NCBI GenBank assembly: GCA_013824245.1 | Contig: PNNN01000046.1 | Coordinates: 1-58,872, forward strand | Direction of reading: 5' to 3' | Origin: Chlorobiaceae bacterium | GTDB taxonomy: Bacteria; Bacteroidota; Ignavibacteria; UBA10030; SZUA-254 | DNA length: 58,872 nt | Shown here: in pieces, positions 40,874 through 58,725 of the stretch | Layout: every line of letters begins with the position of its first letter | Numbering within the stretch: the first letter of the stretch is position 1 | Notes under the pieces: model-generated | Databases searched by the model: none | What the model was told of the DNA's origin: nothing | Seen by the model: only the letters and a program-made list of their open reading frames with translations | Translations under genes and position numbers: made by a program

Positions 40874-42388
40874 ATGTTGCGTCAACTATTCGAGACAAAA
40901 AGCCTAGATAGGATACTTAAAGATTCTGAAAGATCAGATCATAAGCTGAAGCGTGTACTTGGTCCTGTAGATTTAATCGCGCTTGGTATCGGGGCGATAA
41001 TTGGTTCAGGTATTTTCGCAACAGTGGGAACTGCTGTTGCTGGTGATGCAATGCGCCCGGGTGCAGGTCCTGCAATCGTTCTATCATTTTTTCTAACCGC
41101 AGTTGCATGTGCATTTTGCGGATTGTGTTATGCAGAGTTTGCTTCATCGGTTCCCATCTCTGGGAGCGCTTACACATATTCTTACGCCACCCTCGGCGAA
41201 TTAGTCGCATGGATTATCGGATGGGATCTCATCATTGAATACGCCGTGGGGAATGTTGCTGTAGCGATAGCATGGGCGGCATACTTTCATCAGTTGTGCG
41301 CCGGTATCGGGTTGGATATTCCCGCATGGATATCAGTCGATTATAGGAGCGCCGTTCAAGCAGGTAATGCTGTGATACAAGCGGGAGGGCAGGTCGATCC
41401 CTCGATCTCGCTTTACTATAAAGCATGGATCGATCATCCTACGATTGCCGGTATTCCAATTATTTTCAACTTTCTCGCCGCCTCTATCGTGATGATAATT
41501 ACCTGGCTGCTCGTTATTGGAGTTAAAGAATCCGCGCGCGCCAATAACGTCATGGTTGCAATCAAACTTGTTATCCTATTCTTCTTTATCTACTCGGGTA
41601 TCAAATACGTACAGCCAGAAAACTGGTCACCGTTCATGCCAAATGGATTTTCGGGTGTGTGGGTTGGTGCGAGCTTAATTTTCTTTGCATATATCGGCTT
41701 CGATGCAATCTCGACTGCGGCAGAAGAATGTAAACGTCCTGAGCGCGATATGCCGATCGGGATAATCGGTTCACTGATTATTTGCACTATCCTTTATGTT
41801 ATTGTTGCCGGCGTACTGACGGGAATGGTCCCGTGGAATAAACTCGGTGTTGCAGATCCGCTCGCCGCTGCATTTGCTTACGTTGGTGCCGATGTCTCCG
41901 CCGGTATTGTTGCGATGGGCGCGGTGGTTGCCATGACAGCAGTTCTTTTGGTTTTTCAATATGGTCAACCGCGTATTTTCTTCTCAATGTCGCGGGATGG
42001 ACTGCTACCGGCATACTTTGCTAAAGTTCACCCAAAGTACCAAACTCCACATGTTACAACAATCTGGACGGGAGTTGTTGTCGCTGTAATTTCTGCTGTC
42101 GCGAATATCAATGAAATTGTTGAGTTGACGAACATTGGAACACTCTTCGCCTTCATCCTCGTCTGTGCAGGTGTCATCATTCTGCGGTATAAAGACCCTG
42201 ATCGTCCCAGGGCGTTCCGGACACCGCTTGTCCCGTACATACCGCTTCTCGGTATTGCTTCATGCATTTATTTAATGTTGGGTTTACCGTGGGTGACCTG
42301 GTGGAGATTTTTCATCTGGCTTTTAATCGGAATTATTATCTATTTGGCTTATGGTTACCGCAACAGCAGATTGAGGCAATCACAGTGA
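40874..42388 (+). CDS. APC-superfamily amino-acid permease
   Basis: The 504 residues have about 12 to 13 membrane helices and the family pattern: LGPVDLIALGIGAIIGSGIFATVG near 29-52, LCYAEFASSVPISGSAYTYSYATLGE near 88-113, FFAYIGFDAISTAAEE near 269-285 and DRPRAFRTPLVPY near 445. This matches the cationic amino-acid transporter branch (YfnA/CAT-like). It probably imports amino acids with protons or by exchange. It stands alone between DUF2007 and ferritin genes. Confidence 0.92.
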   Translation: MLRQLFETKSLDRILKDSERSDHKLKRVLGPVDLIALGIGAIIGSGIFATVGTAVAGDAMRPGAGPAIVLSFFLTAVACAFCGLCYAEFASSVPISGSAYTYSYATLGELVAWIIGWDLIIEYAVGNVAVAIAWAAYFHQLCAGIGLDIPAWISVDYRSAVQAGNAVIQAGGQVDPSISLYYKAWIDHPTIAGIPIIFNFLAASIVMIITWLLVIGVKESARANNVMVAIKLVILFFFIYSGIKYVQPENWSPFMPNGFSGVWVGASLIFFAYIGFDAISTAAEECKRPERDMPIGIIGSLIICTILYVIVAGVLTGMVPWNKLGVADPLAAAFAYVGADVSAGIVAMGAVVAMTAVLLVFQYGQPRIFFSMSRDGLLPAYFAKVHPKYQTPHVTTIWTGVVVAVISAVANINEIVELTNIGTLFAFILVCAGVIILRYKDPDRPRAFRTPLVPYIPLLGIASCIYLMLGLPWVTWWRFFIWLLIGIIIYLAYGYRNSRLRQSQ

Positions 42389-44691: not shown

Positions 44692-45019
44692 AAGCGAATA
44701 TTCACCTTCAATATAAAAAGACAAGAAACTTTCCGCTGATTGAAAATCAATTCAACCTAAGTTGGTTTTGCAAATAAAACCACTTTTGCTTATTTTGCAT
44801 AATCATTAGCCGTTGTTGGCTCTAAATTGCATAAGAAAACGCACAGATATTGAATTCGTCGAGTGCGGATTCCAATCACACCATCATCATCACTATCGTT
44901 CTTTGGCGCGCTATTTAACACTCTCCTCGAAATACAAGTCGAAGATTGATATAAGCCTGCCCAAATTTTAATCACTAACATCACAACGACATTTAATTTA
45001 TTCACAATAGGAGTATACC
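44692..45019. other. AT-rich intergenic region
   Basis: No gene supported; a minus-strand open frame here has no ribosome binding site and no family resemblance. It must hold the promoter of the DUF485/symporter group, but no clear -35/-10 pair stands out. Confidence 0.5.
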
Positions 45020-45295
45020 ATGTTGCATGAACCTGCTGTAGAACTGGGAAAAGATCATTCGATTCCCCAAAAGACAAAATTAGGGATCATAATGTTCCTC
45101 GTATATTTAATCATTTATGCCGGTTTCGTATTTATCGGAACGATTTATCCGAAAGCATTAGGCGCTAAAGTTATTGGTGCTCAGAACCTGGCTTTCATAT
45201 ATGGAATGGGATTGATCCTTCTCGCGGCAGTAATGGGCTTAGTATATAATTACTTCTGCACAAAATTCGAAAACAAATGGAATAAGGGAGCGTAA
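45020..45295 (+). CDS. DUF485-family small membrane protein
   Basis: The 91 residues have two helices (about 24-43 and 60-80) with the family sequence LIIYAGFVFIGTIYPKAL and a charged C-terminus. Like E. coli YjcH beside ActP, it precedes a sodium:solute symporter gene by one base, indicating a joint transport unit. AGGAG precedes the ATG. Confidence 0.85.
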   Translation: MLHEPAVELGKDHSIPQKTKLGIIMFLVYLIIYAGFVFIGTIYPKALGAKVIGAQNLAFIYGMGLILLAAVMGLVYNYFCTKFENKWNKGA

Positions 45296-45296
45296 T

Positions 45297-47195
45297 ATGA
45301 TTTATGAAATTTCACCAACTGCGATTACCATATTCCTTTTCTTTGTCTTAACTGTCTTAGGTCTTTCATTCTATTTTGCCAGGAAAACAAAATCAGCGAG
45401 CGGATATTATGCCGCAGGCGGACAAATTCACTGGGCAGTGAATGGGATTGCATTTGCAGGCGATTATTTATCGGCGGCGTCGTTTCTCGGTATTTGTGGA
45501 ATGATTGCATTCTTCGGTTATGATGGTTTTCTTTATTCAATCGGATATTTAGCCGGCTGGGTTGTTGCACTTTTTCTGGTAGCAGAGCCAATGAAGCGGC
45601 TCGGTAAATATACATTTGCCGATGCACTTGATTCAAAATTCGATTCTCGCGGGATTAAATTAACTGCGGCAATAAGTACACTTGTCGTTTCAATATTTTA
45701 TTTGATTCCTCAGATGGTGGGCGCAGGTGCCATCGTAACAACACTCCTCGGTCTGCCGCATTATGTCGGGGTGCTTATGGTCGGGTCGGTTGTTATCCTC
45801 ATCGTTGCAACAGCAGGCATGACATCAACAACTTATGTTCAATTTATTAAAGGCGGATTGCTGATAGTCTTTTCATCAATCCTGGTATTTTTAGTTTTGA
45901 ATAAAGGTTTAGACAAATCACCATCCGACGAGTATCATAAATTTATCACCCTTGATGCAACAGTCACAGATGGGAAAGTAATGGCTGTAAGTGATGCAGA
46001 ATATAAAATACTTGGCCAACAAAATGATAAGGATCTCGTATTTGTAAAGCTGGAAAAAAACGGTGTCTTTTCGTGGTGGAAAATAAGTTCAAGGGATGGG
46101 TCCCCAGTTCTGGAAGAAGCGCTTTCGGTTGTAACAATGAAAGACGGAATAAAATTGTACAATGGTGAACCGAAAGCTTCGAAGAAGTTTTATCAGGTCG
46201 GCCACATCAACAAAATAATAGTCGATGGAAAAGAGGTGGAGCGCACCGGACCAGTGGGTCCATTCGAATACATAAAAAATATTGAATCATCTGAGATAAC
46301 TCGATTCACAAAGAAAGCTTTTGTGCACGAGGGAGAGAAAGTAACTCTCTATTATCAAAACATTACTTCCGGCGAAGATATTATGAAACCGGGATTGTAT
46401 TACAAACTCGATAAAGGTTCAAATTTCTGGTCACGGCTCGATTTCATTTCTCTGATGCTCGCTCTCTTTTTGGGCACTTCAGCTTTGCCGCATATTTTAA
46501 TCAGATACTATACCGTGCCGAGCCAGCGTGCTGCCCGCAAGTCGACGATTGTTGCAATCGTTGTGATCGGTTTCTTTTATATCCTGACCCTATACATGGG
46601 AACCGGTGCGATGATCAATGGGTGTCTTGATGTTGAGAACTCTAATATGTCAGCTCCGCTTCTTGCAAAAACATTCGGTATCACTTTGTTTTCAATTATC
46701 TCTGCAATCGCGTTCGCAACGATATTGGGCACTGTAAGCGGATTGATTGTTGCTGCATCAGGAGCGGTTGCGCATGACCTGATGGACAAATATATGAAGG
46801 TGAAGATGACTGAACATGGTAAAGTAACCGCAGGCAGATTCGCCGCTGTTGGCGTGGGCATTATTGCAATCATTCTTGGAATTATATTCGAAAAGCAGAA
46901 CGTGAATTTCCTCGTTGGGTTGGCATTTGCGATTGCCGCATCGGCAAATTTACCGGCAATTCTGATGCTGCTCTTCTGGAAGAAAACAACTTCGAAGGGT
47001 ATCTCATGGGGAATCATCGTGGGTATGGTTGCATCTCTTGTGATAATTCTATTCTCACCCACGCTTTATGAAATCTACGGTTTGCCTCCGGACCAAGCTT
47101 GGATTCCGCTTCAGAATCCCGGTATCATTTCAATACCCCTTGGATTTATTACATTAGTTATTGTATCGTTGATGACAAAAAAGAAAACAGTATAA
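45297..47195 (+). CDS. Sodium:solute symporter (ActP-like) with a large soluble insert
   Basis: The 632-residue SSS-family transporter begins with FLFFVLTVLGLSFYFARKTKSASGYYAAGG and ADYLSAASFLGI-type motifs and ends with the usual helices. Residues about 203-375 form a hydrophilic, beta-rich insert (SPSDEYHKFITLDATVTDG to DKGSNFWSRLDF) in an external loop that ordinary members lack or have shorter. It probably takes up acetate or another small carboxylate with sodium. It is preceded by DUF485 and followed by a barrel gene, fitting cooperation across the envelope. Confidence 0.9.
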   Translation: MIYEISPTAITIFLFFVLTVLGLSFYFARKTKSASGYYAAGGQIHWAVNGIAFAGDYLSAASFLGICGMIAFFGYDGFLYSIGYLAGWVVALFLVAEPMKRLGKYTFADALDSKFDSRGIKLTAAISTLVVSIFYLIPQMVGAGAIVTTLLGLPHYVGVLMVGSVVILIVATAGMTSTTYVQFIKGGLLIVFSSILVFLVLNKGLDKSPSDEYHKFITLDATVTDGKVMAVSDAEYKILGQQNDKDLVFVKLEKNGVFSWWKISSRDGSPVLEEALSVVTMKDGIKLYNGEPKASKKFYQVGHINKIIVDGKEVERTGPVGPFEYIKNIESSEITRFTKKAFVHEGEKVTLYYQNITSGEDIMKPGLYYKLDKGSNFWSRLDFISLMLALFLGTSALPHILIRYYTVPSQRAARKSTIVAIVVIGFFYILTLYMGTGAMINGCLDVENSNMSAPLLAKTFGITLFSIISAIAFATILGTVSGLIVAASGAVAHDLMDKYMKVKMTEHGKVTAGRFAAVGVGIIAIILGIIFEKQNVNFLVGLAFAIAASANLPAILMLLFWKKTTSKGISWGIIVGMVASLVIILFSPTLYEIYGLPPDQAWIPLQNPGIISIPLGFITLVIVSLMTKKKTV

Positions 47196-47249
47196 ATCAT
47201 TGAATAAATGGAATTTTCATTTAAACCATAAAGAAAGACGATACTCCAT

Positions 47250-48551
47250 ATGAAAATGAATCATACATTTTGGCTTATATTTATTCTTCTTCTGCCGTTA
47301 TGTTTGCAAGCGCAAGAAGAGAAAAAAGAATTTGGCATCAAGTTCTCAGGATTTGTTAAGAGCGATTTTTTTTACGATACCCGGCAAACGGTCAATATTC
47401 GCGAAGGACATTTCCTGCTTTACCCTGCGGGTGAAAATCTCGATGCTGATGGTAAGGATATCAATGCGAGATACAATTATAACTTTTTATCTATCCAGAC
47501 GCGGTTAACCGGAACGATTAGCGCACCCGATGCATTTGGTGCGAGCGTTTTGGGAGTGCTTGAAGCCGATTTTTTTGGAAATGAAAACACCAGCTTTTCC
47601 GACGTGAACGGATTTAGATTACGTCATGCATACGCAAAGCTTTCGTGGACAAATACAGAGTTGATGTTCGGACAATATTGGCATCCGCTCTTTATTCCGG
47701 GATGTTTTTCGGATGTAATTTCATTTAACACCGGCGCTCCTTTTCAACCATTTTCCCGCAATCCGCAGATGAGGATAACTCAGAAACTCGATAACTTTAA
47801 ACTCATCGGTGTTCTTTCAGCACAGCGTGATTTTACAAGTCCTGGTGGTTCTGCTTCGCTCAGAAATTCCGGATTACCCGAAATACATGCCCAAGTTCAG
47901 TATGAGAATAAAAATGTTGAAACAAAGGAAGAAATACTTGCCGGTTTAGGCGGCGGTTACAAAGTTCTTCTGCCTCTCTTGAATACAGAAAAAGAGAATA
48001 AAAAATACAGCACCGATGAAACGGTTGCAAGCTTATCAACCACAGGATTTCTGAAATTGAAGTTCAAGGATTTCACTTATAAATTACAGGGAGTGTACGG
48101 TGAAAATTTATATGATATGACCATGTTAGGTGGCTATGGTGTTCAAGAGGTTATAGATACGAACAAAAACACAGTAACGTATTCACCCTTTAAAACATTT
48201 TCTATTTGGTCTGAAGTGATGACTCAAGTAGATGATCTCCAGTTTGGTTTGTGGGGTGGATACACGCAAAATTTAGGCGCTAAGAATTCTATAGTTTATT
48301 ATTCAAATAAAGTCGGCGGTACCGATGTTACCATTCGAGGAAGCGACATTAAAAGTATTTGGAGAATATCACCACGGGTCATATTAACATCGGGCAAATT
48401 TAATTTTGCTTTGGAAACAGAATACACAAGTGCAGCATACGCAATAAGAAATAGTAACGGCGATCTTTTGAGAGATGCAAAAGGTGTCATCACAGAAACA
48501 AAGAATCTTTCAAATCTTCGGATATTATTTGCAGTCATATTAAAATTCTAA
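47250..48551 (+). CDS. Porin-like outer-membrane barrel
   Basis: The 433 residues start with a signal peptide (MNHTFWLIFILLLPLCLQAQ) and show alternating strands: FGIKFSGFVKSDFFYDTRQT, RLRHAYAKLSWTNTELMFGQYWHPLF and a terminal NLRILFAVILKF. This is the build of Bacteroidota barrel proteins of the DcaP-like sort. It may admit the substrate used by the symporter immediately upstream (54 bases). A hairpin terminator follows. Confidence 0.8.
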   Translation: MKMNHTFWLIFILLLPLCLQAQEEKKEFGIKFSGFVKSDFFYDTRQTVNIREGHFLLYPAGENLDADGKDINARYNYNFLSIQTRLTGTISAPDAFGASVLGVLEADFFGNENTSFSDVNGFRLRHAYAKLSWTNTELMFGQYWHPLFIPGCFSDVISFNTGAPFQPFSRNPQMRITQKLDNFKLIGVLSAQRDFTSPGGSASLRNSGLPEIHAQVQYENKNVETKEEILAGLGGGYKVLLPLLNTEKENKKYSTDETVASLSTTGFLKLKFKDFTYKLQGVYGENLYDMTMLGGYGVQEVIDTNKNTVTYSPFKTFSIWSEVMTQVDDLQFGLWGGYTQNLGAKNSIVYYSNKVGGTDVTIRGSDIKSIWRISPRVILTSGKFNFALETEYTSAAYAIRNSNGDLLRDAKGVITETKNLSNLRILFAVILKF

Positions 48552-48563
48552 ATTATTCAGCAA

Positions 48564-48600
48564 GACCTCCGTGGTGAAAGTCCTCGGAGGTCGATTATTT
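48564..48600 (+). terminator. Hairpin terminator after the porin-like gene
   Basis: GACCTCCG (48564-48571) pairs with CGGAGGTC (48585-48592). The following T-stretch is weak, so termination may be partial and let transcription reach the phosphoesterase gene. Confidence 0.55.
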
Positions 48601-48609
48601 GAGTAAAAA

Positions 48610-49389
48610 ATGAAAATCGGTATTATCAGCGATATACATGAAGATGTAGTTCGGTTATCGGAAGCAATACGCCTCTTGGAACAGAACAATTGTGATGAGC
48701 TGGTTTGCCTCGGCGATATTACCGGCTTCGATGTATTTTACTATCGTTATCTTTCTACGAGAAGTGCATCCCGTGCTCTCGCCATCATTCGTGAGAATTG
48801 TCGATATGTTGTAACAGGAAATCATGATCTCTATGCAATACGAAAATTACCCAACTGCAATGGGGCATTTACATTTCCTCCCAACTGGTACTCGCTCGAT
48901 TACGATGAGAGAGAACGGTTGAGCAATAAAAAAGTTTGGCTGTTTGAGCAACAAGAACTTCCTTCACTGTTGAATACAAACGAACGGGAGTATCTTCATT
49001 CATTGCCCGATCATGTTATCTTTGAGGTTGATCAGAAACGGATCCTTTTCTCGCATTCACTGTATCCTGATTTTTCCGGCACTTTGGTCTGGAGACCTCA
49101 TGATGTCTGGGATTTTCGAAGGCATTTCAAATTTTTAAAGGAGCAGGGCTGTTTACTTGGATTTTCAGGGCATCTCCATCCTAACGGTATCGGGAAAGCG
49201 ACTCAAAACAATTATTCTTTTTTATCATTTGGAACTTTTAAAATAGAAAATGATTTTGTACAATACATTTGTCCGTGTACGGCAAACAGTTCAAGCAAGA
49301 ATGGTTTTTTAATTTATGACACTAATCAATCAACCCTGAGTGTTGTGCAATTGAAATCGAAAAAATATAAGATCGATTTTTTTACATGA
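48610..49389 (+). CDS. Metallophosphoesterase
   Basis: The 259 residues show the calcineurin-like motifs: Asp-8/His-10 in ISDIHED, Asp-36 in CLGDITG, GNHD near 71-74, FSHSLYPD, and GFSGHLHPNG with the last histidines. It hydrolyses phosphoester bonds, perhaps a nucleotide or a modified protein. The ATG of the next gene overlaps its TGA (ATGA), coupling it to the DUF294 sensor. Confidence 0.9.
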   Translation: MKIGIISDIHEDVVRLSEAIRLLEQNNCDELVCLGDITGFDVFYYRYLSTRSASRALAIIRENCRYVVTGNHDLYAIRKLPNCNGAFTFPPNWYSLDYDERERLSNKKVWLFEQQELPSLLNTNEREYLHSLPDHVIFEVDQKRILFSHSLYPDFSGTLVWRPHDVWDFRRHFKFLKEQGCLLGFSGHLHPNGIGKATQNNYSFLSFGTFKIENDFVQYICPCTANSSSKNGFLIYDTNQSTLSVVQLKSKKYKIDFFT

Positions 49390-52301
49390 AAACCGTTACC
49401 GTTAAAATCAACCGGAAGCATTTTTTCTTCAACATAGTTCTGCCCACACTTCTAACCATTGGGTTATTCATACTTCTCATCTTTGTTTTTATCGTTCCGT
49501 ATTTCGAGCAAAATATGCTCGATGGTAAAAAAGAAATGATCCGCCAGCTTGTGGTTACAGCAATAAGCATTGCATCAAAGTATGAACAGGAAGCCGCCGC
49601 AGGAAGCATTTCCACCGAAGAAGCGAAATCAAAATCACTCATTCGCATAAATCATCTGCGGTATGGAGTTGACAATAAAGATTATTTTTGGATCACCGAT
49701 TTACATCCGACGATGATCATGCATCCATACCGGGGTGATCTGAATGGAACTGATTTGTCCGGTTTTACCGACCCGAATGGGAAAAAATTATTCGTAGAGT
49801 TCGTAAGTATAGTTAAGCAAGATGGCGATGGATATGTCGACTATATGTGGCAATGGATGGATGATTCATCCCGCATCGTTCCCAAAATATCGTATGTGAA
49901 AGAATTCAAACCCTGGGGATGGATTGTTGGGACGGGAATTTATATCGAAGATGTTAAGCTGGAAATATTGGCAATCGAAAAGCGTTTGATCGGGGTTTCG
50001 TTGGCGATATCTGCGCTCATGGCGTTGCTGTTAACATTCATCGTTCGGCAGAATCTTCGTGTAGAGATGAAACGAACGGAAGCCGTGCGGGAATTACATG
50101 AATCGCGCGAGAAATATAAAGTGCTGGTGGAAGCGGCAAATGAAGGCACTGGAATGATTATGGAGGGGAGATGGATTTATTCAAATAAAAAACTCCAGGA
50201 GATGATTGATTGTTCTCCAAACAAAATAATAAGTGATGATCTGAATGAAATCATTCATACGGACATAACCGATGATCTGTTGAAGCTTAGAGAATTCCAA
50301 AAAAGTGATTCTTCATTTCTGCAAATTGAAACTCAAGTGGTTACTAAATCTAAAGCTGTTGCCACAGTGCTTCTCTCCATCTCTAAAATTACGCTTTATG
50401 ATAAAAAAGGTCTCATTGTGATCATTAAGGACCTCACAGTTGACAATGAAGATGAGATCAATCAGGCGGAACGCGGTAAAGAATTATTGCGTCTTTCCGA
50501 ATTACTCTCCATCGGGTTTATCCGGTTTTTACCGGGGAGAAAAGGGAGGATTCTCGAAGCAAATAACGCGGCGGTACAAATGCTCGGTGCAACTTCAGAA
50601 GAAGACGTTTTGAAACTAAATTTTAGCGATCTTTTTGAAGATGGGGAAGAGAAAGAACGGTTTTTCAAGATGATCGAAGATCAAGGTATTGTTAAGGAAT
50701 ATCCTCTTCAGATTCGAACCAACGCAATAAGCCAGCGAACCCTGTCGGTTTCCGCAACGATTGTGAAAGATGAGCATGGAGTTGCTCAATACACGGATGG
50801 AATTTTCGAAGATATTACTGAACATAGGAATCGTGATAGAATCCAGAATGAGCTTCTGATCGAGATGCAGACGGCATCAATGTTTATGAATCAAAAAGTA
50901 ATGAACGTTTTGAAAAAAATTGTATCGTGTGAAATGAATCATTCCATTATGGAAGCCGCAGCATTGATGACAAGTAATAAGTCGAGCGTAATTTTGCTTC
51001 GCTCACTTGGAGATGAATTCGTCGGAATTCTCACTGATCACGACATCCGTGAACGCGTTGTTGCAGGCGGCTTAGATCCCGGACGTCCGGTTTACGAAAT
51101 TATGAGTTCACCCATTCACTACATTGATGAAACTGCCACCCTCTCAGACGCAGTCATCAAAATGAAGCATACGAAAGTCAGCCATTTAGTCGTCAAAAAC
51201 GCTGGAAAGCAAATAGCAGGATTTTTAAGCAGAAATACAATCGAAGATCTTCGCCAGTTAGATCATGAGGCATTCGTTAATAGCATTCATACGGCGGTTA
51301 ACATTGATGAATTAAAAAAACATTTTCAACGGATAATGCTCTTGGTTAACGCGCTGGTGGAAGGTGGTGCGCGTACAACAAGCATAACAAAATTAATCAC
51401 CGCAGTTGCAGATGCAATTACGGAAAAGCTCGCCGATATGGTCATCGCCGAATTAGGCAAGCCACCTGTTACGTTTGCATTCGTTGCGTTAGGGAGTGAA
51501 GGAAGATCGGAACAAACGCTTTTGACCGATCAGGATAATGCATTGATTTATAGCGATAACATTGATATCGATAGTAACATTGTTACAGACTATTTCCACC
51601 GTTTCGGAGAAAGGATGAACACGCTCCTTGATAAAGTGGGATACTCGTTGTGCAAGGGTGATGTTATGGCGCAAAATCCGCGATGGAACCAACCTCTATC
51701 GAAATGGAAAAAATACTTTACCGAATGGATAGTAACTCCTGAACCCAAGAACCTGCTTGATCTGAGCATCTTCTTCGATCTACGATGCGTATATGGTGAC
51801 AAGATGCTTGTAGATGAACTGATTCTTCACATCAATCAAGCGCTGTCTCAACATCCTTCTTTCTTCGGATCTTTAGCGCGCGTCTGCATGAATTATAAAA
51901 TACCACTTGGGATATTCGGGAAGATTCACACGGAATCTTCGGAAGATCATGGTAAGAGTGTGAATGTTAAAAATGCCGCAAGGGTGATCGTCAATCTCGT
52001 CAGACTCTATACAATGCACAAACAAATCGCGGAAACGAACACCATTCGGAGAATGGATTATTTGTATGAAAAGAATATTCTTAGCCGTTCATTTTATCGC
52101 GATTTAAAATACGCTTTTGATTTTCTTATGGTGATTCAATTCAGTAGCCAATCGCGGGCATTCAATACAGGTAAAAAAATGGATCATCATGTCGATCTCT
52201 CCGATCTCACGAGTATTGAAGTTAAGACACTTAAATCGATTTTTTCCCAGATCGCCGTTTTTCAGTCGAAGGTAAAACACGATTTTGGAATTACTGAGTA
52301 A
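49386..52301 (+). CDS. Membrane sensor: Cache, PAS, PAS, paired CBS, DUF294 nucleotidyltransferase
   Basis: The 971-residue protein has TM1 (about 15-37), a single-Cache periplasmic domain (40-195; NKDYFWITDLHPTMIMHPY, GWIVGTGIY), TM2 (205-222), two PAS domains (240-480), two CBS repeats (510-630; LTDHDIRERVV) and a GlnD-like nucleotidyltransferase (GSEGRSEQTLLTDQDNALIY from about 703) with the DUF294 helical C-terminus. It may nucleotidylate a protein in response to small-molecule ligands outside and adenylate state inside. Translational coupling to the phosphoesterase suggests a write/erase pair; target unknown. Confidence 0.85.
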   Translation: MKTVTVKINRKHFFFNIVLPTLLTIGLFILLIFVFIVPYFEQNMLDGKKEMIRQLVVTAISIASKYEQEAAAGSISTEEAKSKSLIRINHLRYGVDNKDYFWITDLHPTMIMHPYRGDLNGTDLSGFTDPNGKKLFVEFVSIVKQDGDGYVDYMWQWMDDSSRIVPKISYVKEFKPWGWIVGTGIYIEDVKLEILAIEKRLIGVSLAISALMALLLTFIVRQNLRVEMKRTEAVRELHESREKYKVLVEAANEGTGMIMEGRWIYSNKKLQEMIDCSPNKIISDDLNEIIHTDITDDLLKLREFQKSDSSFLQIETQVVTKSKAVATVLLSISKITLYDKKGLIVIIKDLTVDNEDEINQAERGKELLRLSELLSIGFIRFLPGRKGRILEANNAAVQMLGATSEEDVLKLNFSDLFEDGEEKERFFKMIEDQGIVKEYPLQIRTNAISQRTLSVSATIVKDEHGVAQYTDGIFEDITEHRNRDRIQNELLIEMQTASMFMNQKVMNVLKKIVSCEMNHSIMEAAALMTSNKSSVILLRSLGDEFVGILTDHDIRERVVAGGLDPGRPVYEIMSSPIHYIDETATLSDAVIKMKHTKVSHLVVKNAGKQIAGFLSRNTIEDLRQLDHEAFVNSIHTAVNIDELKKHFQRIMLLVNALVEGGARTTSITKLITAVADAITEKLADMVIAELGKPPVTFAFVALGSEGRSEQTLLTDQDNALIYSDNIDIDSNIVTDYFHRFGERMNTLLDKVGYSLCKGDVMAQNPRWNQPLSKWKKYFTEWIVTPEPKNLLDLSIFFDLRCVYGDKMLVDELILHINQALSQHPSFFGSLARVCMNYKIPLGIFGKIHTESSEDHGKSVNVKNAARVIVNLVRLYTMHKQIAETNTIRRMDYLYEKNILSRSFYRDLKYAFDFLMVIQFSSQSRAFNTGKKMDHHVDLSDLTSIEVKTLKSIFSQIAVFQSKVKHDFGITE

Positions 52302-52302
52302 C

Positions 52303-52450
52303 CTTACCCTGATCCTGCAAGGCAGCAATCGCTCAAGAGAACTAATCCGCAGAGCGGAGTTCCTCGGATACGAGTAAATTATTTGCGGTGGCTCGGCAAT
52401 ATACGCTGCACTATCGCAGGTGCTGGGTAAGTGATACCACGACAATGGTA
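52303..52450 (+). ncRNA. Candidate structured RNA
   Basis: CTTACCC (52303-52309) pairs with GGGTAAG (52425-52431); after a 4x4 internal loop, CCTGC (52314-52318) pairs with GCAGG (52416-52420); then GCAGC (52322-52326) with GCTGC (52405-52409). The enclosed multiloop has hairpins TCCGC-AGA-GCGGA (52346-52358) and CTCG-GATA-CGAG (52363-52374), and TACCA/TGGTA (52435-52450) follows. A terminator comes next. No known RNA class is matched. Confidence 0.45.
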
Positions 52451-52464
52451 GTCTCTAAAATTGC

Positions 52465-52497
52465 AGAGGCGGGTTTAAGCACCCGCCTCTTGTTTCT
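52465..52497 (+). terminator. Rho-independent terminator
   Basis: AGAGGCGGGT (52465-52474) pairs with ACCCGCCTCT (52481-52490), a perfect 10-base stem with a 6-base loop, followed by TGTTTCTCTT. It ends the DUF294 transcript and the structured RNA. Confidence 0.85.
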
Positions 52498-52547
52498 CTT
52501 GGGCAATTTATCGTTACAATAAATTGTGGATTGTTATTCCCGGGCTG

Positions 52548-52658
52548 TTACAATCCCAGCAGTAATTTAGCAATGATTAACAGAGCAATTAACCCTACAA
52601 CAAAGCCAAATATTCCCCAAGCTACTTGCTTACCGGATTGAATATTTTCTTCTGACAT
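52548..52658 (-). CDS. 36-residue single-helix membrane protein
   Basis: The frame starts at an ATG with TGAGGA about ten bases upstream and encodes MSEENIQSGKQVAWGIFGFV followed by a hydrophobic helix to KLLLGL. A soluble polar head and one membrane helix are seen. Codon use is like the neighbours. No family is recognised. Confidence 0.6.
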   Translation of the reverse strand: MSEENIQSGKQVAWGIFGFVVGLIALLIIAKLLLGL

Positions 52659-52753
52659 AATATTCCTCATTTAAATAAAATAGTTATATCGATCCGAAAA
52701 CAATCGGATCGAACGATAATTGTGTATTAATTAAGAAGAGTATTAGTGGTAAG

Positions 52754-53116
52754 TTACAGGTCGGAAGATGTTTGCAATGTATGAAGAAGGTGCTTCTGGT
52801 ATACGGGTGTTTTTTCCGAGGGAAAATCTGTGAGTAACAAGGAAATATGCGATTCACAGACCAGACTTACAGTTGTTCGATTAGGAGAAGAGATTTGTAC
52901 GACCGGGTTCTGATCGTTTTGTTTGGTCTTTATCCAATTCGGACTGAAGGTAAATATAGTCGATTGGGTGATCTGTGGTTCAGTGGGTGACTTTGGAACT
53001 GGATTATTACCGGTTTGAACTGTCGTTTCCAACACGAGGATGGAAACGAGTACCAGCAAAAGAACACTCAGCGAAGATTGCAGTTTACTGAACTTATTTA
53101 AGAGACCATTTTTCAT
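52754..53116 (-). CDS. Small exported or membrane-anchored protein
   Basis: The ATG at 53116 is preferred to a TTG at 53128. The 120 residues start MKNGLLNKFSKLQSSLSVLLLVLVS, a signal or anchor helix, followed by a Pro/Thr/Ser-rich segment with TGNNPVPKSPTEPQITQS. The rest has no recognisable fold. The ribosome binding site is weak, so the gene is likely but unproven. Confidence 0.45.
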   Translation of the reverse strand: MKNGLLNKFSKLQSSLSVLLLVLVSILVLETTVQTGNNPVPKSPTEPQITQSTIFTFSPNWIKTKQNDQNPVVQISSPNRTTVSLVCESHISLLLTDFPSEKTPVYQKHLLHTLQTSSDL

Positions 53117-53214
53117 TTCTATAAACAATTTACAACATTACAATGCGATTTGCAAAAATAGGAGACGGGAGTTTACCGCACGCTTCCTTCCCCAATCCAG
53201 TGATTTTAAGATAG

Positions 53215-53526
53215 CGCCCACTTTTTGGCGTAGAAAACCATCTGAACTATATCTACCGACCAAGCGGTCACCTTGATCGCAATGAGATATTAGGTTTTGC
53301 CGCATTGCTGAACAGCACTCTCTTCGATACATATTTCCGGACATTCAATGGTAATATCAATGTGAGTGCAACAGAGCTGCGAGAAATGCCTTTGCCACAA
53401 CTTGCAACAATCAAGCAAATCGGAAACGCAATTATCATAAAAAACAATTTCTCTCAATCCGTTGTAGATGAGGTTATCGAACAGTTCTTTAAATTAGAAA
53501 AGGAATTCTCAACAGTATATGAGTGA
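53215..53526 (+). pseudogene. Remnant of an Eco57I-type restriction-modification enzyme (C-terminal target-recognition part)
   Basis: After an in-frame TAG at 53212 the frame reads RPLFGVENHLNYIYRPSGHL, then LGFAALLNSTLFDTYFRTFN, GNINVSATELREMPLPQL and about 45 more residues to the stop. This is the conserved C-terminal piece of class IIG/Eco57I-type adenine methyltransferase-endonucleases. The N-terminal catalytic part is absent from the window, so it is a dead fragment, not a working enzyme. Confidence 0.75.
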
Positions 53527-53751
53527 CTAATGTTACGCAGAATAAGGATTTATCACAATAGCCCCACGATTTATCTTGGGGATTAATGAAACCCAACTAA
53601 TATTGGGGCTTCAGCTCACAAATTATGGGGTTAAAACCCTCGTGGTTTTGTTTTTTATATTTCCCCGAACTGAAGTTCGGGGCTATTAAGACTTCAAAAA
53701 CAATGATATGTGATATCAGTTAGTAAAACAAAAAATTTATCCTAACATTAT
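53527..53751. repeat. Palindromic intergenic repeat (CCCCGAACT type)
   Basis: CCCCGAACT (53663-53671) and AGTTCGGGG (53674-53682) form a perfect 9-base stem with a 2-base loop. Further GGGG/CCCC arms lie at 53565-53582. Such elements are dispersed in many Bacteroidota genomes. No gene here. Confidence 0.6.
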
Positions 53752-53937
53752 TCAGATATATTTTGTCAGAAGTAATCCCCACAACACCGCGCCAAGTATT
53801 ATACGGTAAAAGATGAATACGTAAGTCGTATGCTTCTGTAGGAATTTCAGCAGGAACGATATCGCCCAGTAGCCGACAATTCCTGAAACAAACGTGGATA
53901 CGATGAGAGGCGCAATTCCTAAATCGCCTTTTTTCAA
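53752..53937 (-). pseudogene. C-terminal remnant of a second uppP
   Basis: The 61-codon frame (GDLGIAPLIVSTFVSGIVGY, then SFLLKFLQKHTTYVFIFYRI) aligns with the last 57 residues of the intact uppP at 54282, with 39 identities by my count. It opens straight after a stop codon with no usable ATG. Third-position differences are frequent, so it is an old or foreign copy, not a recent duplication. Confidence 0.8.
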
Positions 53938-54281
53938 TCAAAATTTAAACACGATTTTAGAATTAGCGAGTAGTGGGTGTCATATCATTACATGATATCA
54001 CTTGGAAATAAATTGAATCTGAGATGATTGAAAATTTGTTTTATTCTTCTAAATCTATTATATTAATTTAAGTTTACACCATCTTCGGACTCCCCCTAGT
54101 GCTGCCGGCCCTCCCACGGCATCACACCGTCTGAAGATGGTTTTTTATTTTAATAATTATCCTTTCTCAGAGAGACTATTTCAGGGATATTTACAAAATT
54201 ATCTATGAATCCTCAAAAATAATAAAAACCCTGCCAATTCTTGAACCACGGAAAGACAGAAATCTAATTGAAGTTTATAAT
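53938..54281. other. Intergenic region with hairpin RNA candidate
   Basis: AT-rich apart from the GC-rich hairpin at 54078-54141. No gene is seen on either strand. Nothing on the minus strand looks like a uppP terminator. Confidence 0.5.
54078..54150 (+). ncRNA. Candidate small RNA hairpin with C-rich unpaired parts and terminator
   Basis: ACCATCTTCGGAC (54078-54090) pairs with GTCTGAAGATGGT (54129-54141); inside, GTG-C-TGCCG (54099-54107) pairs with CGGCA-T-CAC (54117-54125). Unpaired parts are TCCCCCTA and CCCTCCCA, which could base-pair with Shine-Dalgarno sequences. The stem is followed by TTTTTTATTTT, as in a rho-independent terminator. No plus-strand gene lies directly upstream. Confidence 0.45.
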
Positions 54282-55253: not shown

Positions 55254-56807
55254 TTACGCAGTATGTACGATTTTATTATTTAAAACTCCTTCTGATTTTG
55301 CGATACATGTTGCAACAGCCGCATCACCGGAAGTATTAACTACAGTTCGGCACATATCGAGGAATCGATCGACTCCTAATATGAGGGCAATTCCTTCTTC
55401 AGGGATATTCACCGACCTTAAAACAATAATCAACATAATAATTCCAACACCCGGCACCGGTGCCGTACCGATAGATGCCAGTAAAGCCGTTAATAAAATA
55501 ATTAATTGCTCTGAGAGGTGTAATTCAACGCCATAAACCTGAGCAATAAATACTGCCGCAACTGCCTGGTACATTGATGTACCGTCCATGTTAATAGTTG
55601 CACCCAATGGAAGTACAAAACTTGTAATCTTTTTCGGTACACCGAGGTTCACCTCACAACATTCCATATTCACAGGTAATGTGGCTGCACTTGAGCTTGA
55701 TGTAAATGAGATCAGCATGACATCTCTAATCCCTCTGAAAAATTTTATCGGATTCATCCCGGCAAAAATCTTCACCGTTAAACCGAGAACGATGAATTGA
55801 TGAATAGTGAGTCCGATAATAAGCGTGAGAGCATACCAGAATAATGTTTGCAGTATATCGAATCCAAACTCGCTGACTGTTGCTGAAATCAATGCGAACA
55901 CACCGATCGGGGCAAGCTTCATGATTATCTCCACCATGCGAATCATCATGTCGCTGAAGCCATCGAAGAAACGGATAACCGGTTCAGATTTTTCTTTCCT
56001 GATCATCGTTAATGTTATTCCGACCATCAACGCGAAGAAAACGATTTGCAGCATCTCCGCATTTGCCATAGCGGCAATTGGATTAGTTGGCACTATGTTC
56101 ACAATCGTGTTAATGACATTCAGATCAACACTTTCTGCAATTTTAGCTTGAATGTTAGGAGAGAATTCCACGAGCAATTTCTCTCTTGCCTCCGTTGATA
56201 GCCGATCTCCTGGTCGAATAGTATTTGCGAGCGTTAGTCCGATTGTGATGGCTATTGCAATGAGGCAGAAGTAAAATAACATCATCTTGGCGCCAATTTT
56301 ACCAACTGTGCGGATGTTTCCTAAACTTGATGCACCGACTATTAGAGAAGCAAGCACCAGAGGGATAGCAATAAATGTTAAGAGTCGGATGAATAATGTC
56401 CCGATTGGCTTTATGTAAAGCGGGATTGTTTTGACTTTCTCAATCTTATTTATATCCTGAAATTCTTGGGTCGATTCTTTAGCTGGATCATTTGCTGTTA
56501 TTTTTGTGACGATAAAAACGAGTTTAGTCTTTTCCGGCTTACTTAAACTTTGGAAATAATTTAATAGTTTTAGTTGGTCATCTTTTCCGAAAGTTGCTAA
56601 TACATTTCGATTTTGTATATCAATAACATCGATTCTATCCCACTTTTCAATCTTTACTGTTTGTTCTTTCCCATCAACTTTGAATTGAAAAATGAGTTCA
56701 TATTTACTCACGTTTAACCAGGCGCCAAAAAATGCACCGAGTAAAAGTCCGAGCAAGATTTTATTATGTAACTTAATATTCCAGAGCCAAGAGAGTATGA
56801 ATTTCAT
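55254..56807 (-). CDS. Dicarboxylate/amino acid:cation symporter with soluble insert (DAACS)
   Basis: The 517 residues have the family core (LTFIAIPLVLASLIVGASSL, SFTSSSSAATLPVNMECCE with the serine-rich loop, and LGATINMDGTSMYQAVAAVF). Between helix 1 (15-33) and the next helix, residues 34-130 form a soluble beta-rich insert (IFQFKVDGKEQTVKIEKWDR..) not usual in the family. It imports dicarboxylates or glutamate/aspartate with sodium or protons. A 7-base hairpin (55157-55177) lies between it and uppP without a T-run. Confidence 0.92.
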   Translation of the reverse strand: MKFILSWLWNIKLHNKILLGLLLGAFFGAWLNVSKYELIFQFKVDGKEQTVKIEKWDRIDVIDIQNRNVLATFGKDDQLKLLNYFQSLSKPEKTKLVFIVTKITANDPAKESTQEFQDINKIEKVKTIPLYIKPIGTLFIRLLTFIAIPLVLASLIVGASSLGNIRTVGKIGAKMMLFYFCLIAIAITIGLTLANTIRPGDRLSTEAREKLLVEFSPNIQAKIAESVDLNVINTIVNIVPTNPIAAMANAEMLQIVFFALMVGITLTMIRKEKSEPVIRFFDGFSDMMIRMVEIIMKLAPIGVFALISATVSEFGFDILQTLFWYALTLIIGLTIHQFIVLGLTVKIFAGMNPIKFFRGIRDVMLISFTSSSSAATLPVNMECCEVNLGVPKKITSFVLPLGATINMDGTSMYQAVAAVFIAQVYGVELHLSEQLIILLTALLASIGTAPVPGVGIIMLIIVLRSVNIPEEGIALILGVDRFLDMCRTVVNTSGDAAVATCIAKSEGVLNNKIVHTA

Positions 56808-57060: not shown

Positions 57061-58725
57061 TTATTTCTCCTTCTTTAATCTGTTAGCACTGGCTCTATAG
57101 ACCATGTAAGCGATTAATAAAAATGTAGCGATCAATAAGATGCGGGCTCCGTTTGTGAAGAGCAATTGTAATTCAAGATGTGAAATAACTGCCGGATCGG
57201 TGGCAGCAGCGATTTGTTCATGCAAGCCGGCATTAAAAAATTGTTTAATGATTGAGCCATTGTCGAGTTCCCAGCCATTTCCACTCATCAAGCTGCTTAA
57301 CGCCGCAGACCAGTTCCCTTTCTTCGGTGAGAAGATTGAACCGATGAAGACAAAGAAAAGAAACGCGGGTGTAATATATTTTATTATGAATTTGTAAATA
57401 TTCGGGACTTTAATATCTGCACCGGTGGTTAATTCGTTCCAACCGTTTTTAATCCCAAAGATCCATGAAAATAAAATAGATTCCACTAAAGCAAAGATGA
57501 CGAGAGATACCGTTCCTGCCCAGTAATCGTATTCATCGAAGACACCGAAGTTGTAGAAAAAGACAGTCGGCAAACCGAGTATAAGCACAAATAAACCGAA
57601 TGACCACGCCGATTTATTTCTCGTCCATTTAAATTCATCCTGCATAAATGCCATCCATGGTGTTCCCATCGCGAGGGAGGATGTTATACCGGCGAAGAAA
57701 AGAAGTCCGAACCAAAATAATCCCGCCGTGGCTGCAAGCATAGGTCCCCAGTTTTCAAATAGAAACGGCATTGTTTGAAATGCCATACCGAAGCCAGCGT
57801 TTTCTTTCACCCAATCTAATCCTAAATATCCGGCTGCAATCGGGATAACGATTAAACTGCCAAGAACAACTTCAACGAATTCGTTTGTCCATCCGGCAGA
57901 CATCGCGTTTAATGCGATATCATCTCTCGATTTCACATAAGCGGCATAACAATGAATCGTGCCCATTCCGACTGAGAGTGTGAAGAAAATTTGGCCTGCG
58001 GCGGCTAACCATACTTTCGGATTCGATAATGAATCGAATTGCGGATTCCAAAGAAAATCGATGCCAGCCCAGGCGCTTGCGTCGGGATGTGCAATGCTTG
58101 CTCCTGATGTACCTAAAGTAAGTCCGCGAATGGCTAAGAATATACCGAACAATATTAAAATCGGCATCCCAATTTTTGCAGTCAGTTCGATTCCGCCGCT
58201 CAATCCACGCGATAGAATCCACGTGTTGAGTGCGAGACACAAAACATAAAAGATAATAGCTTCGTACGGTATTCCTGTTGTTGATGTTGTGATGTCAACA
58301 TAATTCCTAAAAAAGTTTGCAACCTCTAATTGGTTCATTCCATCAAAAGTTCTGGCAAGCGAATGAATCACATAAGACATCGTCCATGATTCGATATAAC
58401 AATAATACGCTGCGATAGCAAGGTTAGTCCATATTCCAAACACGGCGAAATATTTCCAGTAATGTTTCTTACCCATCCTTTCGAACATGAAGGGAGGAGA
58501 ATGATGTCCGGCTTTACCTCCGTATCTACCAATCGACCATTCAATCCACAACAATGGTATTCCCATTACCAGAAAAGAAACGAGGTAGGGGATTATGAAA
58601 GCTCCGCCACCGTTATTTACTGCTTGTACCGGGAAACGTAGGAAATTACCAAGTCCTACCGCATTCCCCGCCATTGCAAGTACAAGTCCAACTCTTGTTC
58701 CCCAACCTTCTTTTGTCGATGACAT
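57061..58725 (-). CDS. Sodium-dependent NSS/SNF-family transporter
   Basis: The 554 residues show the LeuT-like start GLVLAMAGNAVGLGNFLRFP (sodium-site Asn and the unwound helix 1), NGGGAFIIPYLVSF, and 11 to 12 helices in the family order. With the MetS-like gene downstream it most resembles methionine/alanine uptake systems of the NSS family. AAGGTG precedes the ATG. Substrate is inferred from the small subunit, not seen. Confidence 0.93.
   Translation of the reverse strand: MSSTKEGWGTRVGLVLAMAGNAVGLGNFLRFPVQAVNNGGGAFIIPYLVSFLVMGIPLLWIEWSIGRYGGKAGHHSPPFMFERMGKKHYWKYFAVFGIWTNLAIAAYYCYIESWTMSYVIHSLARTFDGMNQLEVANFFRNYVDITTSTTGIPYEAIIFYVLCLALNTWILSRGLSGGIELTAKIGMPILILFGIFLAIRGLTLGTSGASIAHPDASAWAGIDFLWNPQFDSLSNPKVWLAAAGQIFFTLSVGMGTIHCYAAYVKSRDDIALNAMSAGWTNEFVEVVLGSLIVIPIAAGYLGLDWVKENAGFGMAFQTMPFLFENWGPMLAATAGLFWFGLLFFAGITSSLAMGTPWMAFMQDEFKWTRNKSAWSFGLFVLILGLPTVFFYNFGVFDEYDYWAGTVSLVIFALVESILFSWIFGIKNGWNELTTGADIKVPNIYKFIIKYITPAFLFFVFIGSIFSPKKGNWSAALSSLMSGNGWELDNGSIIKQFFNAGLHEQIAAATDPAVISHLELQLLFTNGARILLIATFLLIAYMVYRASANRLKKEK

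What the first reader, a model, noticed from the sequence alone, without database searches (positions are those of the whole stretch)
48610..52301. Coupled phosphoesterase and Cache-PAS-CBS-DUF294 sensor
The genes overlap by four bases. The second joins a periplasmic Cache sensor, two PAS and two CBS domains to a GlnD-like nucleotidyltransferase, where such enzymes usually carry a cyclic-nucleotide domain. A membrane receptor that nucleotidylates a target, with a partner that reverses the mark or degrades a product, would be a new signalling pair.
Basis: inference. Interest (0 to 1): 0.65.

Follow-up and report, generated by a model that had tools for sequence, protein, structure and literature searches.

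The report
Carboxylate-sensing nucleotidyltransferase receptor with dedicated phosphodiesterase
A bacterial membrane receptor that almost certainly senses small food acids such as acetate is fused to an enzyme resembling those that tag proteins with nucleotides, and is encoded beside its own tag-cutting partner and an acid-uptake system, which points to a largely unstudied form of bacterial nutrient signalling.

Summary
A metallophosphoesterase (MPE, 48610-49389) overlaps by four bases a 971-residue receptor (NT, 49386-52301): two membrane helices, sCache_2, two PAS, two CBS, DUF294, DUF294_C. The pair is the tail of a five-gene module (DUF485, ActP/MctC-like symporter, porin-like protein, MPE, NT) that sits in a 9.6-kb stretch absent from a same-genus genome.

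(1) All seven C2/C3-carboxylate contact residues of the PscD sensor are identical in the NT and in 22/22 homologues. (2) The nucleotidyltransferase motif is intact in 22/22, and the predicted fold matches the protein AMPylators GlnE and DrrA (Z 25-26). (3) In 310 genomes the MPE subfamily occurs only beside Cache-NTs (13/13). (4) Ordinary cNMP-CBS-DUF294 enzymes instead have an adjacent DnaQ-like exonuclease (52/71, never MPE); Cache-NTs have MPE (15/23, never DnaQ). Both kinds occur near monocarboxylate symporters.

Most likely this is an acetate/pyruvate-type receptor that nucleotidylates a component of carboxylate uptake, with the MPE removing the mark. The target and chemistry are untested. 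PII is excluded as target: the genome has none. I found no report of this architecture or of the partner exchange in the open library searched.

The parts
45020..45296 (+). DUF485-like small membrane protein, 91 aa; stop codon abuts the symporter start
   Evidence: sequence; co-located with the symporter in L031, L033, L037, L039, L041, L042, L043, L047, L079
45297..47195 (+). sodium:solute symporter of the ActP/MctC (acetate/monocarboxylate) type, 632 aa
   Evidence: Pfam SSF 1e-71; NCBIfam MctC-type 470 bits and ActP 419 bits, both below equivalog/subfamily cut-offs
45906..46361 (+). 152-residue insert in the symporter (residues 204-355), no Pfam match
47250..48551 (+). porin-like outer-membrane protein, 433 aa (annotation by inference: signal peptide and beta-rich; no Pfam or NCBIfam match)
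   Evidence: homologues in the same position in L031, L032, L039, L043
48610..49389 (+). calcineurin-like metallophosphoesterase (MPE), 259 aa; complete metal-site motifs D8 H10 D36 N71 H72 H149 H188 H190
49386..52301 (+). Cache-PAS-PAS-CBS-CBS-DUF294-DUF294_C receptor nucleotidyltransferase (NT), 971 aa
49425..49505 (+). NT transmembrane helix 1 (about residues 14-40)
   Evidence: hydropathy, model helix 10-71
49521..49970 (+). periplasmic sCache_2 domain (residues 46-195) with the seven C2/C3-carboxylate contact residues Y100 W102 H113 F136 Y153 W155 K167
49983..50045 (+). NT transmembrane helix 2 (about residues 200-220)
   Evidence: hydropathy, model
50145..50432 (+). PAS domain 1 (residues 254-349)
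   Evidence: model; NCBIfam sensory_box second stretch
50514..50813 (+). PAS domain 2 (residues 377-476)
50898..51245 (+). CBS domain pair (about residues 505-620)
51330..51749 (+). DUF294 nucleotidyltransferase domain (residues 649-788)
51492..51536 (+). nucleotidyltransferase signature GSEGRSEQTLLTDQD (residues 703-717); G703 S704 R707 E709 D715 Q716 D717 invariant
51858..52286 (+). DUF294_C helical domain (residues 825-967)
52465..52490 (+). terminator-like hairpin after the module (10 pairs, 7 G-C)
44692..54281 (.). stretch holding the whole module, absent from same-genus genome G172, where the two flanking genes are 275 bases apart

Best explanation
This is a one-protein transmembrane receptor for C2/C3 carboxylates (acetate, pyruvate, propionate or glycolate). 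Its output is a GlnE/DrrA-type nucleotidyltransferase. In steps: the porin-like protein and the DUF485-symporter pair bring the acid in; the periplasmic Cache domain binds it; the signal passes through the second membrane helix, the PAS domains and an adenylate-binding CBS pair, and sets the activity of the cytoplasmic DUF294 enzyme; that enzyme transfers a nucleotide (most likely AMP) to a protein of carboxylate uptake or activation (most likely the symporter or its DUF485 subunit); and the co-translated MPE, a dedicated phosphodiesterase, removes it. Supported computationally: sensor specificity, intact catalytic site and fold, dedicated partnership, and genetic link to carboxylate uptake. 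Inferred: that the product is a protein-nucleotide bond, the identity of the target, and the direction of MPE action.
For: Sensor: nearest solved structures are Adeh_3718 (4k08, crystallised with acetate) and PscD (5g4y/5g4z, KD 23-356 uM for glycolate, acetate, propionate, pyruvate; PMC5062169). All seven PscD propionate contacts are conserved in the NT and invariant in 22/22 homologues. The position whose Leu marks L-lactate sensors (PMC12415202) is His here. Model against 4k08: Z 23.5, 1.0 A over 144 residues. Output: DUF294 motif invariant 22/22; the model's C-terminal part matches GlnE 1v4a Z 26.4 (338 residues), DrrA 6yx5 Z 25.4 and GlnE C-domain 3k7d Z 25.2, all protein AMPylators. Partner: full-length MPE subfamily (E < 1e-95) in 5 of 296 phylum genomes and 8 of 14 further genomes, 13/13 beside a Cache-NT; all other metallophosphoesterases score about 1e-19 or worse and match only in part. 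Analogy: DUF294 enzymes without Cache have an adjacent DnaQ-like exonuclease in 52/71 loci and MPE in 0/71; Cache-NTs have MPE in 15/23 and DnaQ in 0/23. Context: symporter within 8 kb in 19/23 Cache-NTs and 20/71 others, acetyl-CoA synthetase beside 10/71 others. Pseudomonas Pflu5625 (cNMP-CBS-nucleotidyltransferase) is in the CrbS/R acetate regulon with DUF485-ActP (PMC5715377). The module is gained or lost as a unit.
Against: No target is known and no biochemistry exists for any DUF294 protein found in the library. Six of 21 Cache-NT loci whose flanks could be read have no MPE, so the MPE is not obligatory. In the closest studied system, deleting Pflu5625 had a negligible effect on growth on acetate (PMC5715377). 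CBS and PAS2 are absent from some homologues. Adjacency counts are not corrected for shared ancestry: the Cache form is one side of a single branch in the DUF294 tree, with weak support (SH-aLRT 53). The host genome has no ACAS_N-type acetyl-CoA synthetase, only acetate kinase.
Confidence: 0.5

Rival explanations
1. The DUF294 domain makes a small nucleotide messenger or a nucleotidylated metabolite, and MPE (or DnaQ in the cNMP form) is the phosphodiesterase that destroys it. The CBS pair may sense the product.
For: The MPE model's nearest characterised structure is SapH, an asymmetric Ap4A hydrolase and phosphodiesterase (Z 18.8). DnaQ-fold enzymes act on nucleic-acid phosphodiesters. CBS pairs bind adenylates (neighbours include AMP-bound 2rif and 9s4v).
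Against: The closest output folds, GlnE and DrrA, modify proteins, and no separate receptor or effector gene for a messenger is conserved in the module.
Confidence: 0.25
2. MPE is a protein phosphatase or phosphoesterase acting on something else in the module (for example phosphorylated PAS/CBS regions or transporter), and is co-transcribed but does not oppose the NT.
For: Calcineurin-fold enzymes include PP1/PP2A and lambda phosphatase (Z about 15). MPE is dispensable in some loci.
Against: The nearest folds are phosphodiesterases or uncharacterised metallophosphoesterases rather than protein phosphatases (Z 18-23 against 15), and other DUF294 enzymes have an unrelated phosphodiesterase, DnaQ, in the equivalent place. 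No kinase gene is conserved in the module.
Confidence: 0.15
3. The NT is a regulatory pseudo-enzyme: it senses carboxylate and acts by binding, without nucleotide transfer.
For: A few Cache-free DUF294 relatives have lost the DxD motif (4 of 70).
Against: The motif is invariant in all 22 Cache-NTs, and the broken copies mostly lack the hydrolase partner (3 of 4; small numbers).
Confidence: 0.07

Closest known systems
cNMP-CBS-DUF294 proteins such as Pflu5625 of Pseudomonas fluorescens (CrbS/R acetate regulon; PMC5715377)
   Same: CBS pair + DUF294 + DUF294_C; genetic link to ActP-type or DUF4212-linked symporters and acetyl-CoA synthetase; many have an adjacent phosphodiesterase-type gene
   Different: Those sampled here are predicted soluble and mostly carry a cyclic-nucleotide domain and a DnaQ-like exonuclease neighbour. 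The window protein is membrane-bound with Cache and two PAS domains, and is paired with a metallophosphoesterase.
GlnE glutamine synthetase adenylyltransferase/removase (1v4a, 3k7d) and Legionella DrrA (6yx5)
   Same: predicted fold of nucleotidyltransferase plus helical C-terminal domain (Z 25-26); G-S...DxD signature
   Different: about 14% identity; no transmembrane sensor in those proteins. GlnE reverses its own mark with a second internal domain, whereas here a separate metallophosphoesterase is proposed.
GlnD / PII uridylylation cascade
   Same: sensor-controlled nucleotidyltransferase principle; DUF294_C and the GlnD C-terminal domain share a Pfam clan (PMC3710099)
   Different: the host genome has no PII gene; no HD or ACT domains
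PscD, McpP and Adeh_3718 chemoreceptors (sCache_2)
   Same: 43-46% identity over the sensor and all seven ligand-contact residues
   Different: their output is chemotaxis signalling; here it is a nucleotidyltransferase
MctS sensor kinase with MctC/MctP-type monocarboxylate transport
   Same: Cache input matches the MctS model (89 bits over residues 39-220); linked to a monocarboxylate symporter
   Different: below the MctS cut-off (700 bits); output is DUF294, not a histidine kinase, and no response regulator is conserved in the module

Membership tests
DUF294 (PF03445) + DUF294_C (PF10335) nucleotidyltransferases | both domains above curated cut-off | tested here: met
   161 and 111 bits against 21 and 22.5
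DUF294 (PF03445) + DUF294_C (PF10335) nucleotidyltransferases | polymerase-beta-type signature G-S-x10-D-x-D intact | tested here: met
   G703 S704 D715 D717 invariant in 22/22
cNMP-CBS-DUF294 with DnaQ partner (Pflu5625 type) | N-terminal cyclic-nucleotide domain | tested here: not met
   no PF00027 match; sCache_2 and PAS instead
cNMP-CBS-DUF294 with DnaQ partner (Pflu5625 type) | adjacent DnaQ-like exonuclease | tested here: not met
   0/23 Cache-NT loci, the window included
GlnE/DrrA-type protein AMPylators | fold of NTase plus helical domain | tested here: met
   Z 26.4 / 25.4 / 25.2 over 297-338 residues; predicted model, pLDDT mostly above 85 in this part
GlnE/DrrA-type protein AMPylators | transfers AMP to a protein tyrosine | not testable with these tools
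   needs biochemistry
GlnD/PII cascade | PII protein present as target | tested here: not met
   no PF00543 match in the 100%-complete own genome, while 13 of 14 control genomes ring
sCache_2 sensors of C2/C3 carboxylates (PscD type) | seven ligand-contact residues of PscD | tested here: met
   Y100 W102 H113 F136 Y153 W155 K167, invariant 22/22
sCache_2 sensors of C2/C3 carboxylates (PscD type) | binds acetate, glycolate, propionate or pyruvate | not testable with these tools
   needs thermal shift or calorimetry
calcineurin-like metallophosphoesterases (PF00149/PF12850) | curated score and five metal-site motifs DxH, GD, GNHD, H, GHxH | tested here: met
   44 and 47 bits; D8 H10 D36 N71 H72 H149 invariant, H188 H190 at least 90%
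MctS sensor kinases (NF052443) | full-length score over cut-off, histidine-kinase output | tested here: not met
   89 bits against 700; match limited to residues 39-220
MctC / ActP symporters (NF058657, TIGR02711) | equivalog cut-off | tested here: not met
   470 against 670 and 337 against 1099 bits; belongs to the SSF family

The most novel reading that the evidence does not exclude
A class of transmembrane receptor that signals extracellular nutrient by protein AMPylation, with its own dedicated de-AMPylating phosphodiesterase. Bacteria would have recruited two unrelated phosphodiesterase folds (DnaQ and calcineurin-like) for the same job beside DUF294 enzymes that control monocarboxylate uptake.
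Probability: 0.4. Interest if true: 0.82.

Novelty: new variant of a known kind. Interest (0 to 1): 0.64.

Why it matters
DUF294 proteins are widespread (about a third of the sampled genomes of this phylum had a match; also seen in Proteobacteria, Acidobacteriota and others), yet no substrate for them turned up in the library searched. The Cache form supplies what the soluble form lacks: a predictable ligand, a dedicated hydrolase and a small set of candidate targets encoded beside it. That makes the long-open question of what DUF294 enzymes modify directly testable. If correct it adds nucleotide transfer to the known outputs of transmembrane receptors (kinase, methyl-accepting, cyclic-di-GMP).

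Tried and rejected
PII as target: own genome has none. DnaQ as target: DnaQ-like genes keep their catalytic acids and occupy the place taken by MPE, so they look like partners. MPE as a generic housekeeping enzyme that happens to sit there: rejected, since the subfamily occurs only beside Cache-NTs. L047 as a histidine-kinase variant: rejected, Pfam shows Cache-PAS-DUF294-DUF294_C. Literature searches for DUF294 function, the DnaQ link, Cache plus nucleotidyltransferase, and DUF4212 gave nothing beyond PMC5715377 and PMC3710099; the library holds open-licence papers only. A first MctS search returned human transporter papers. Solved-structure sequence search for MPE found none. Scan for sigma-70 promoters: no more than in shuffles, so the promoter is not located. 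Loss of E705 coincides with loss of MPE in one sub-clade (L035, L037, L044, L082), but this is probably one event, so no weight was put on it.
Full report
OBSERVATION. MPE is a calcineurin-like metallophosphoesterase; NT carries sCache_2, PAS, two CBS, DUF294 and DUF294_C. AlphaFold on 22 homologues (mean pLDDT 82.5) shows a long first helix, a Cache fold, a second membrane-coiled-coil helix, two PAS-like domains (254-349, 377-476), a CBS pair and the nucleotidyltransferase. Hydropathy peaks at residues 14-40 and 201-220 put the Cache domain outside the membrane and the rest in the cytoplasm.

THE REAL UNIT IS FIVE GENES. Upstream lie a DUF485-like protein (45020-45296), an ActP/MctC-type sodium symporter (45297-47195) and a porin-like protein (47250-48551), all on the same strand with gaps of at most 58 bases. 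A terminator-like hairpin follows NT at 52465-52490. The same order DUF485-symporter-porin-MPE-NT occurs in records titled Acidobacteria (L031, L043) and Aminicenantes (L039), and as far as the contig reaches in Chrysiogenales (L032), with symporter identities of 74-80%. In a same-genus genome (G172) the genes flanking the module, anti-sigma factor and bacA, are 275 bases apart, against 9.6 kb here; NT, MPE and symporter are absent from that genome. So the block is gained or lost as a unit. High symporter identity to other phyla suggests horizontal transfer (inference).

INPUT. The Cache domain's nearest solved structures are Adeh_3718 (4k08; crystallised with acetate) and PscD (5g4y/5g4z), which binds glycolate, acetate, propionate and pyruvate (PMC5062169). 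PscD contacts Tyr90, Trp92, His103, Phe126, Tyr143, Trp145 and Lys156 correspond to Y100, W102, H113, F136, Y153, W155 and K167, each identical in 22/22 homologues. A leucine in place of the histidine marks L-lactate sensors (PMC12415202); here it is always histidine. The ligand prediction, acetate/pyruvate-type C2/C3 acids, is therefore strong though not measured. It agrees with the symporter next door.

OUTPUT. G703, S704, R707, E709, D715, Q716 and D717 are invariant in 22/22. The C-terminal part of the model matches the adenylyl-removase and adenylyl-transferase halves of E. coli GlnE (Z 26.4 and 25.2) and DrrA (Z 25.4). From general knowledge, GlnE and DrrA AMPylate a tyrosine of a protein; hence protein AMPylation is the preferred chemistry. 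The third catalytic acid could not be assigned: D759 of the window is not conserved.

PARTNER. An HMM of 15 MPEs finds full-length relatives in only 5 of 296 genomes of the phylum and 8 of 14 genomes reached through homologues, and all 13 lie directly beside a Cache-NT; the next hits drop from about 1e-97 to 1e-19. The MPE model (pLDDT 90) keeps the full set of metal ligands and resembles 3rqz (uncharacterised, Z 22.9) and the Ap4A hydrolase/phosphodiesterase SapH (Z 18.8).

A PATTERN ACROSS THE FAMILY. Of 94 DUF294 genes with neighbourhoods, 23 have Cache and 71 do not. With Cache: MPE within 300 bases 15, DnaQ 0, symporter within 8 kb 19. Without Cache: MPE 0, DnaQ-like exonuclease 52, symporter 20, acetyl-CoA synthetase 10. 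Fisher p = 5e-12 for MPE and 9e-11 for DnaQ, treating loci as independent, which they are not: on the DUF294 tree the Cache form needs one change (support of the branch only 53). Of the eight Cache loci without MPE two (L034, L082) begin at a contig edge and so cannot show it; the genome of L082 had no MPE hit. Cache-free enzymes mostly carry a cyclic-nucleotide domain, and their DnaQ-like partners keep DxE, H/D and HxxxxD residues. The inference is that a DUF294 enzyme and a phosphodiesterase form the functional core, and that both sensor and phosphodiesterase fold were exchanged when the membrane form arose. In Pseudomonas fluorescens the cNMP-type protein Pflu5625 is under the acetate regulator CrbS/R together with DUF485-ActP and acs (PMC5715377), though its deletion had a negligible effect on acetate growth.

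MECHANISM AND CONFIDENCE. Shown computationally: architecture, conserved pocket, conserved catalytic motif, dedicated MPE, module with symporter. Inferred: ligand gates the enzyme; enzyme modifies a protein of carboxylate uptake; MPE removes the modification. The overall mechanism is put at 0.5, a small-molecule product at 0.25, an MPE role unrelated to NT at 0.15 and a catalytically inert NT at 0.07. PII is excluded, and ACAS_N-type acetyl-CoA synthetase is absent from this genome, leaving symporter and DUF485 as the nearest candidates.

NOVELTY. DUF294, sCache_2 and metallophosphoesterases are all known families. The Cache-DUF294 receptor, its dedicated MPE and the DnaQ/MPE exchange were not found described in the open-licence library. 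Subscription papers were not searched. Hence 'new variant of a known kind'.

Noticed in passing
45906-46361: 152-residue insert in the symporter (residues 204-355), no Pfam match; shared at 39-63% identity by nine DUF485-linked homologues, weakly by L047, and not detected in the 515-residue symporters of L080, L081 and L083. Possibly a periplasmic docking domain.
   Followed up: partly
window genome G000: No PII (PF00543) gene found in a genome rated 100% complete, and no ACAS_N acetyl-CoA synthetase; acetate kinase is present.
   Followed up: partly
L175:5927-13171: Desulfocarbo has two DUF294 genes in tandem with one DnaQ-like and one acetyl-CoA synthetase gene between them; one DUF294 copy has lost the DxD motif.
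   Followed up: no
L085, L100, L101: Cache-free DUF294 proteins with a broken catalytic motif (such as SRQHN) also lack the adjacent DnaQ gene, which would fit coupling of activity and hydrolase; small numbers.
   Followed up: no
53221-53526: Open stretch (frame starting at 53221) that reads like the C-terminus of an adenine methylase-type protein by eye, with no Pfam match; perhaps a gene remnant inside the inserted stretch.
   Followed up: partly
L035, L037, L044, L082: The sub-clade of Cache-NTs without MPE also lacks the glutamate after GS (E705) in the active-site loop.
   Followed up: no
40874-42388 and 57061-58725: The module is flanked by more transporters: an amino-acid permease and a sodium:neurotransmitter-type symporter, besides a dicarboxylate symporter at 55254-56807.
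   Followed up: no
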